A stretch of DNA of 63,369 nt from Chloroflexota bacterium (GTDB lineage Bacteria > Chloroflexota > Anaerolineae > Promineifilales > Promineifilaceae). Below the pieces are notes generated by a model that searched no databases, had not been told where the DNA came from, and was given only the letters and a program-made list of their open reading frames with translations. Position 1 is the first letter of the stretch; every line of letters begins with the position of its first letter. The position numbers and the translations under genes were made by a program. Below are positions 51,679 through 52,045 of the stretch, in pieces. The stretch is from positions 1 to 63,369 of the forward strand of contig JAGNBF010000038.1 in NCBI GenBank assembly GCA_018004935.1. The letters are read 5' to 3'.

Positions 51679-51744
51679 GTTCACTCTATCCATAACAAGA
51701 GTTTTGTTCTCTGAGCGAACTCTCCGGAAATTGTTAGAATCTAG

Positions 51745-51926
51745 TAGGGCGATTGCATACGCGGATTTGCCCCACCCCTAACCCCGCTCCCAGGGGCGGG
51801 GAATTTTTTAAGAGCCGTTTTTCGCGGGCATTCACCCGTGAAAAACGGCTCAAGTTGGTTCTTTTCCCTTCCTGGCGGGAATCGTTAAGGCGGTGGGTTC
51901 ATTGGGGTGAGTAGGCAATCGCCCTG
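51745..51926 (+). mobile_element. Family A miniature element, complete copy with target duplication
   Basis: 182 bp. Terminal repeats TAGGGCGATTGCATAC (51745-51760) and GTAGGCAATCGCCCT (51911-51925). Leader CCCCACCCCTAACCCCGCTC with GGGGCGGGGAA, hairpin arms 51812-51828 (GAGCCGTTTTTCGCGGG) and 51835-51851 (CCCGTGAAAAACGGCTC; one G-U pair in RNA), then TGGCGGGAATCGTTAAGGCG. It is flanked by a 10-bp direct repeat TAGAATCTAG (51735-51744, 51927-51936). Confidence 0.9.
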
Positions 51927-52045
51927 TAGAATCTAGCCGGTTAATTGTGCCACCCCCAACAGGGGTTTACAAATTAGAGGGGGATGGGTTTTGTTCCAGG
52001 CAATAAAATTGGGGCATGGTTCAGGTAAGTTTTACAAATTTAACG

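What the first reader, a model, noticed from the sequence alone, without database searches (positions are those of the whole stretch)
51735..51936. Complete family A mobile element with terminal repeats and a 10-bp target duplication
The element 51745-51926 has matching ends (TAGGGCGATTGC and GCAATCGCCCT) and sits between two copies of TAGAATCTAG. With no coding capacity this is a miniature inverted-repeat element moved by an unseen transposase. Other copies lie at 1-150, 8716-8825, 14544-14690, 33945-34200, 36325-36425 and in part at 53645-53700.
Basis: seen in the sequence. Interest (0 to 1): 0.78.

Follow-up and report, generated by a model that had tools for sequence, protein, structure and literature searches.

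The report
ISAs1-ended miniature transposon in Anaerolineae
It is a 182-base parasitic DNA fragment with no genes of its own, present in scores of copies in this Chloroflexota (Anaerolineae) genome, whose ends and 10-base target duplication match insertion sequences of the ISAs1 family found in related bacteria, so an ISAs1 transposase most likely moved it.

Summary
Window 51745-51926 is a 182-bp two-ended element between perfect 10-bp repeats (TAGAATCTAG). Its ends occur 192 times in the 8-Mb genome, against 1 for the reversed control. Of 47 two-ended copies with both flanks readable, 29 have a 10-bp duplication with at most one mismatch; random flank pairs give 0.55%. A paralogous site without the element has one target copy.

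The unseen transposase can be named. Intact insertion sequences in relatives carry the same ends and encode ISAs1-family transposases; one has a perfect 10-bp duplication. No ISAs1 transposase was found in the window's own genome assembly.

Positions 1-149 and 14544-14690 carry one true end, and 34129-34202 is an end fragment. At 8716-8825, 33945-34080, 36318-36415 and 53648-53722 only the internal hairpin repeat is present, a separate host family.

In other Anaerolineae the same 18-bp ends enclose unrelated, genome-specific cores. Verdict: an ordinary kind of element (a MITE), newly assigned to ISAs1, with two unusual features: exact 10-bp tandem re-insertion and an exchangeable hairpin.

The parts
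51735..51744 (.). left target-site duplication TAGAATCTAG
   Evidence: identical to 51927-51936; 10-bp duplication general over copies
51745..51926 (+). complete ISAs1-ended MITE, 182 bp, subfamily A1
51745..51762 (+). left terminal inverted repeat TAGGGCGATTGCATACGC
   Evidence: same 18-bp end on ISAs1 elements of relatives
51782..51801 (+). GC-rich hairpin 1 followed by a T run (terminator-like; scan count no higher than in shuffles)
51812..51851 (+). hairpin 2, long palindrome exchanged as a unit between copies
51909..51926 (-). right terminal inverted repeat, reads CAGGGCGATTGCCTACTC on the - strand
51927..51936 (.). right target-site duplication TAGAATCTAG
1..149 (-). copy cut by the contig start, one true end at 138-149
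14544..14690 (+). copy with intact left end and lost right end
34129..34202 (+). right-end fragment (..GGGTTCATTCTGGGGAGTAGGCAATC)
36318..36415 (+). core repeat without ISAs1 ends (host hairpin repeat)
8716..8825 (+). core repeat without ISAs1 ends
33945..34080 (+). core repeat without ISAs1 ends, flanked by a different imperfect terminal repeat (..TTAATCAGGTAATG / CGTTACCCGATTAA..)
53648..53722 (-). partial core repeat without ISAs1 ends, same left flank type as 33912-33986

Best explanation
51745-51926 is a non-autonomous ISAs1-family MITE. An ISAs1 transposase, supplied in trans, recognises the 18-bp terminal repeats (YAGGGCGATTGCATACTC). It joins the ends to a target cut with a 10-bp stagger, so host repair leaves a 10-bp direct repeat. 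Nothing between the ends appears to be needed: in each host lineage the two ends have come to enclose a different intergenic hairpin repeat, and the pair has then multiplied. Shown: ends, copy number, 10-bp duplication, paralogous empty site, and ISAs1 elements with the same ends in relatives. Inferred: trans-mobilisation itself, and that the partner IS was once in this genome but is now lost or missing from the assembly.
For: 192 ends in the genome against 1 reversed control. 23 of 47 copies with a perfect 10-bp duplication and 29 with at most one mismatch, against 0.55% of random flank pairs. Paralogous site without the element and with one target copy, 93% identical across the junction. Six copies of the young A2 subfamily are identical over 183 bp at different places. 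In relative G038 a 1407-bp element has ends CAGGGCGATTGCATACTA/C and a 378-aa transposase that scores 400 bits to the ISAs1 model, cut-off 70. In G024 a 1253-bp ISAs1 element has TAGGGCGATTGCATGA ends and a perfect 10-bp duplication. ISAs1 elements in G031, G015 and G007 have closely similar ends.
Against: No ISAs1 transposase or fragment in the window's own assembly, so the partner is known only from other genera. The G038 element, which has the best-matching ends, lacks a target duplication. About a third of the two-ended copies have no recognisable duplication, as expected for old or recombined copies but not proven.
Confidence: 0.9

Rival explanations
1. The unit is a static intergenic hairpin repeat (REP-like or terminator-like) kept by selection; the terminal repeats are part of its structure and it does not transpose.
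For: The core exists without the ends in many copies, and its hairpin shows strong paired changes. Hairpin 1 is followed by a T run.
Against: 10-bp target duplications that differ from site to site, a paralogous site without the element, identical copies at unrelated sites, and the same ends around unrelated cores in other genomes.
Confidence: 0.05
2. A transposase of another family (for example one of the other DDE families giving about 10-bp duplications) moves the element, and the likeness of the ends to ISAs1 elements is secondary.
For: No ISAs1 gene in the window's own assembly.
Against: No PF01609 (DDE_Tnp_1) match of any kind in this genome either. 14-18 identical bases at both ends of ISAs1 elements in several genera, with the same 10-bp duplication length in the best-preserved one.
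Confidence: 0.05

Closest known systems
ISAs1 insertion-sequence family (NCBIfam NF033564; Pfam PF13808 + PF01609)
   Same: Terminal repeats beginning Y/CAGGGC and a 10-bp duplication, as on intact ISAs1 elements of relatives.
   Different: 182 bp, no gene; no ISAs1 transposase found in the same assembly.
Bacterial type I MITEs (non-autonomous elements that share their inverted repeats with an IS; described this way in PMC3542288)
   Same: Short, non-coding, multi-copy, terminal inverted repeats shared with an IS, target duplication.
   Different: Only the roughly 18-bp ends match the IS; the interior is a host hairpin repeat, different in each genome. The partner IS was found only in relatives.
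REP-like extragenic palindromes (as surveyed in PMC3733652, title and abstract only)
   Same: The core without ISAs1 ends is a high-copy extragenic palindrome.
   Different: The only Y1 transposase match in the genome is a single weak one, and no link to the core was tested.

Membership tests
MITE (type I) | short, without coding capacity | tested here: met
   182 bp; lies between the ORFs ending/starting at 51350 and 52253 with no ORF of 100 aa or more over it
MITE (type I) | terminal inverted repeats | tested here: met
   18-bp ends
MITE (type I) | target-site duplication of fixed length that varies in sequence | tested here: met
   10 bp
MITE (type I) | multiple copies | tested here: met
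   192 ends, 89 BLAST matches including partial ones
MITE (type I) | same ends as an autonomous IS | tested here: met
   in relatives only
MITE (type I) | mobilised in trans by that IS | not testable with these tools
   needs a transposition assay
ISAs1 insertion sequence (autonomous member) | ISAs1 transposase gene inside the element | tested here: not met
   element has no gene; none found in own assembly. It is therefore filed as a derivative, not a member.
ISAs1 insertion sequence (ends only) | ends and duplication length of the ISAs1 clade found in relatives | tested here: met

The most novel reading that the evidence does not exclude
One ISAs1 end pair has repeatedly, in at least five Anaerolineae lineages, come to enclose the host's own intergenic hairpin repeats and turn them into MITEs. 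In this genome the long central palindrome is swapped as a unit, always keeping near-perfect pairing, either by arm-copying template switching or by selection on the hairpin.
Probability: 0.35. Interest if true: 0.5.

Novelty: new member of a known kind. Interest (0 to 1): 0.33.

Why it matters
It names the transposase family behind one of the most abundant repeats of this Anaerolineae lineage and separates the mobile unit from the hairpin repeat inside it. The same 18-bp ends around unrelated cores in several genera make a natural test of what an ISAs1 transposase needs. The paired changes in the central hairpin, with hardly any one-sided intermediates, bear on how extragenic palindromes keep their two arms matched.

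Tried and rejected
PF13808, PF01609 and NF033564 in the own genome: nothing. Y1/RAYT transposase as the mover: one weak unrelated match, and the element has target duplications, which Y1 transposons do not make (general knowledge). Viral contigs: one match to the end sequence, inside an unrelated sequence without a partner end, taken as chance. Rfam: no match over the element. The idea that the adjacent copies come from transposed dimers: rejected, because the 10-bp spacers differ between loci and equal the outer duplication where it could be read. Literature: no description of ISAs1 MITEs in Chloroflexota turned up in the held library, which is not proof of absence. ISAs1 target-duplication length was not confirmed from a paper; it rests on the elements seen here. 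A PDB search with the transposase found no solved relative.

Full report
What is there. The window is contig C180 of a 7.98-Mb, 229-contig genome. Exact two-ended copies with the same ends outside this genome were found only in Anaerolineae/Chloroflexota MAGs (that scan covers a limited length range). Element 51745-51926 is flanked by TAGAATCTAG at 51735-51744 and 51927-51936. It lies in the roughly 900-bp space between two divergent ORFs, 50016-51350 (-) and 52253-53539 (+).

More than chance. YAGGGCGATTGC occurs 192 times in the genome, and its reversed control once. BLAST with the element gives 89 matches (only 40 candidates scored, and some matches are the internal palindrome alone). From the fetched stretches I collected 49 distinct two-ended copies, most of 180-184 bp; 47 have both flanks readable. 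23 have a perfect 10-bp duplication and 29 have at most one mismatch. Flank identity peaks sharply at length 10: 0.74, against 0.22-0.35 at lengths 6-9 and 11-14. Random flank pairs reach at most one mismatch in 537 of 97,865 trials.

Empty site. At C112:68672-68854 a copy sits in a dispersed repeat. Two other copies of that repeat (L163 and L189) lack the element, hold one copy of the 10-bp target with two differences, and are 93% and 87% identical across the junction. This is a paralogous, not an orthologous, empty site.

The transposase. The window's own assembly has no PF13808, PF01609, NF033564 or ISAs1-protein match. The end AGGGCGATTGCNTACTC is found in eight of 58 relatives besides the own genome. 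In one of them (G038) the two ends flank 1407 bp with a 378-aa ORF, which matches PF13808 + PF01609 and the ISAs1 model at 400 bits. ISAs1 elements in G024 (1253 bp, perfect 10-bp duplication), G031, G015 and G007 have the same or closely similar ends and are ISAs1 by model. More distant ISAs1-like elements (about 30% identity) mostly have CAGGG-type ends and also 10-bp duplications (L111, L110, L098).

Ends are shared, cores are not. Two-ended elements of 121, 130, 164, 184, 195 and 205 bp in relatives share only about 15-22 terminal bases (up to 30 at lower identity) with the window's family and with the IS. The exception is G013/G028, whose cores are related at 72%. In G022 the core has about 15 near-identical copies, most of them in the end-bearing element, and about 28 diverged copies at 73-83% identity; whether each diverged copy lacks the ends was not checked one by one. 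In G013 there are five identical end-bearing copies and several short diverged matches. In the window's genome the core is a separate high-copy repeat: most of the best core matches lack the ends. The direction (host repeat captured by IS ends) is inferred; the reverse (old MITEs that lost their ends) is possible for some copies.

Tandem copies. Six adjacent pairs are separated by exactly 10 bp; only three other close pairs were seen, at -2, 45 and 60 bp. In L041 the sequence GTTAGGGGGA stands left of, between and right of two copies. In the other loci where an outer duplication could be read it equals the spacer (one mismatch in L037). In L199 a copy is inserted inside the end of another, with duplication GGGCGATTGC. 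So the 10-bp target, or a resident end, is reused: the element does not avoid its own copies.

The central hairpin. Over 26 aligned sequences 98% of cells pair. 13 of 16 pairs of hairpin 2 change on both sides, and one-sided changes occur in only two cells of that hairpin. Slid controls pair 40-60%. The loop also appears in inverted form (ATTC/GAAT, TTCG/CGAA). Whole-cassette exchange plus arm-to-arm copying explains this as well as selection does. It is a property of the core repeat, with or without ISAs1 ends, and is not evidence that the MITE itself has a function.

Verdict. It is a new member of a known kind. The unusual parts (host-repeat cores, exact tandem re-insertion, exchangeable palindrome) lift it slightly above routine.

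Noticed in passing
window 33912-34105 and 53648-53722: The same hairpin core also lies between a different imperfect terminal repeat (left ..AAAAAATTAATCAGGTAATG, right CGTTACCCGATTAAAAATTT..), possibly a second MITE family sharing the core; the left flank is also seen at L140.
   Followed up: partly
window 51597-51677 and 49559-49639: 81-bp repeat, 89% identical, itself partly palindromic (GAGTATAYCCACGTTTTGTGGGAG..CCCCACGATTTATGGGTRTACTC), found again next to MITE copies in other contigs (L034, L041).
   Followed up: no
window 150-228 and 32483-32561: A 79-bp repeat (GAGCGTCTACCGCTTCA..) lies directly beside a MITE end at 150, at L027 and at L163, but stands without the end at 32483: the MITE and this repeat may have spread together as a block.
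   Followed up: partly
window 18874-26258: Long arrays of about 300-bp and 405-bp repeats with spacing in multiples of three, apparently one or two large repeat-domain proteins.
   Followed up: no
window 16150-16370: Runs of the 7-bp units TGGTGAR and TCAATCG side by side.
   Followed up: no
L076 1585-2817: Beside the G038 ISAs1 element lies a 410-aa ORF that looks like an integrase-type (DDE) transposase; nested mobile elements could explain the missing target duplication of that IS.
   Followed up: no
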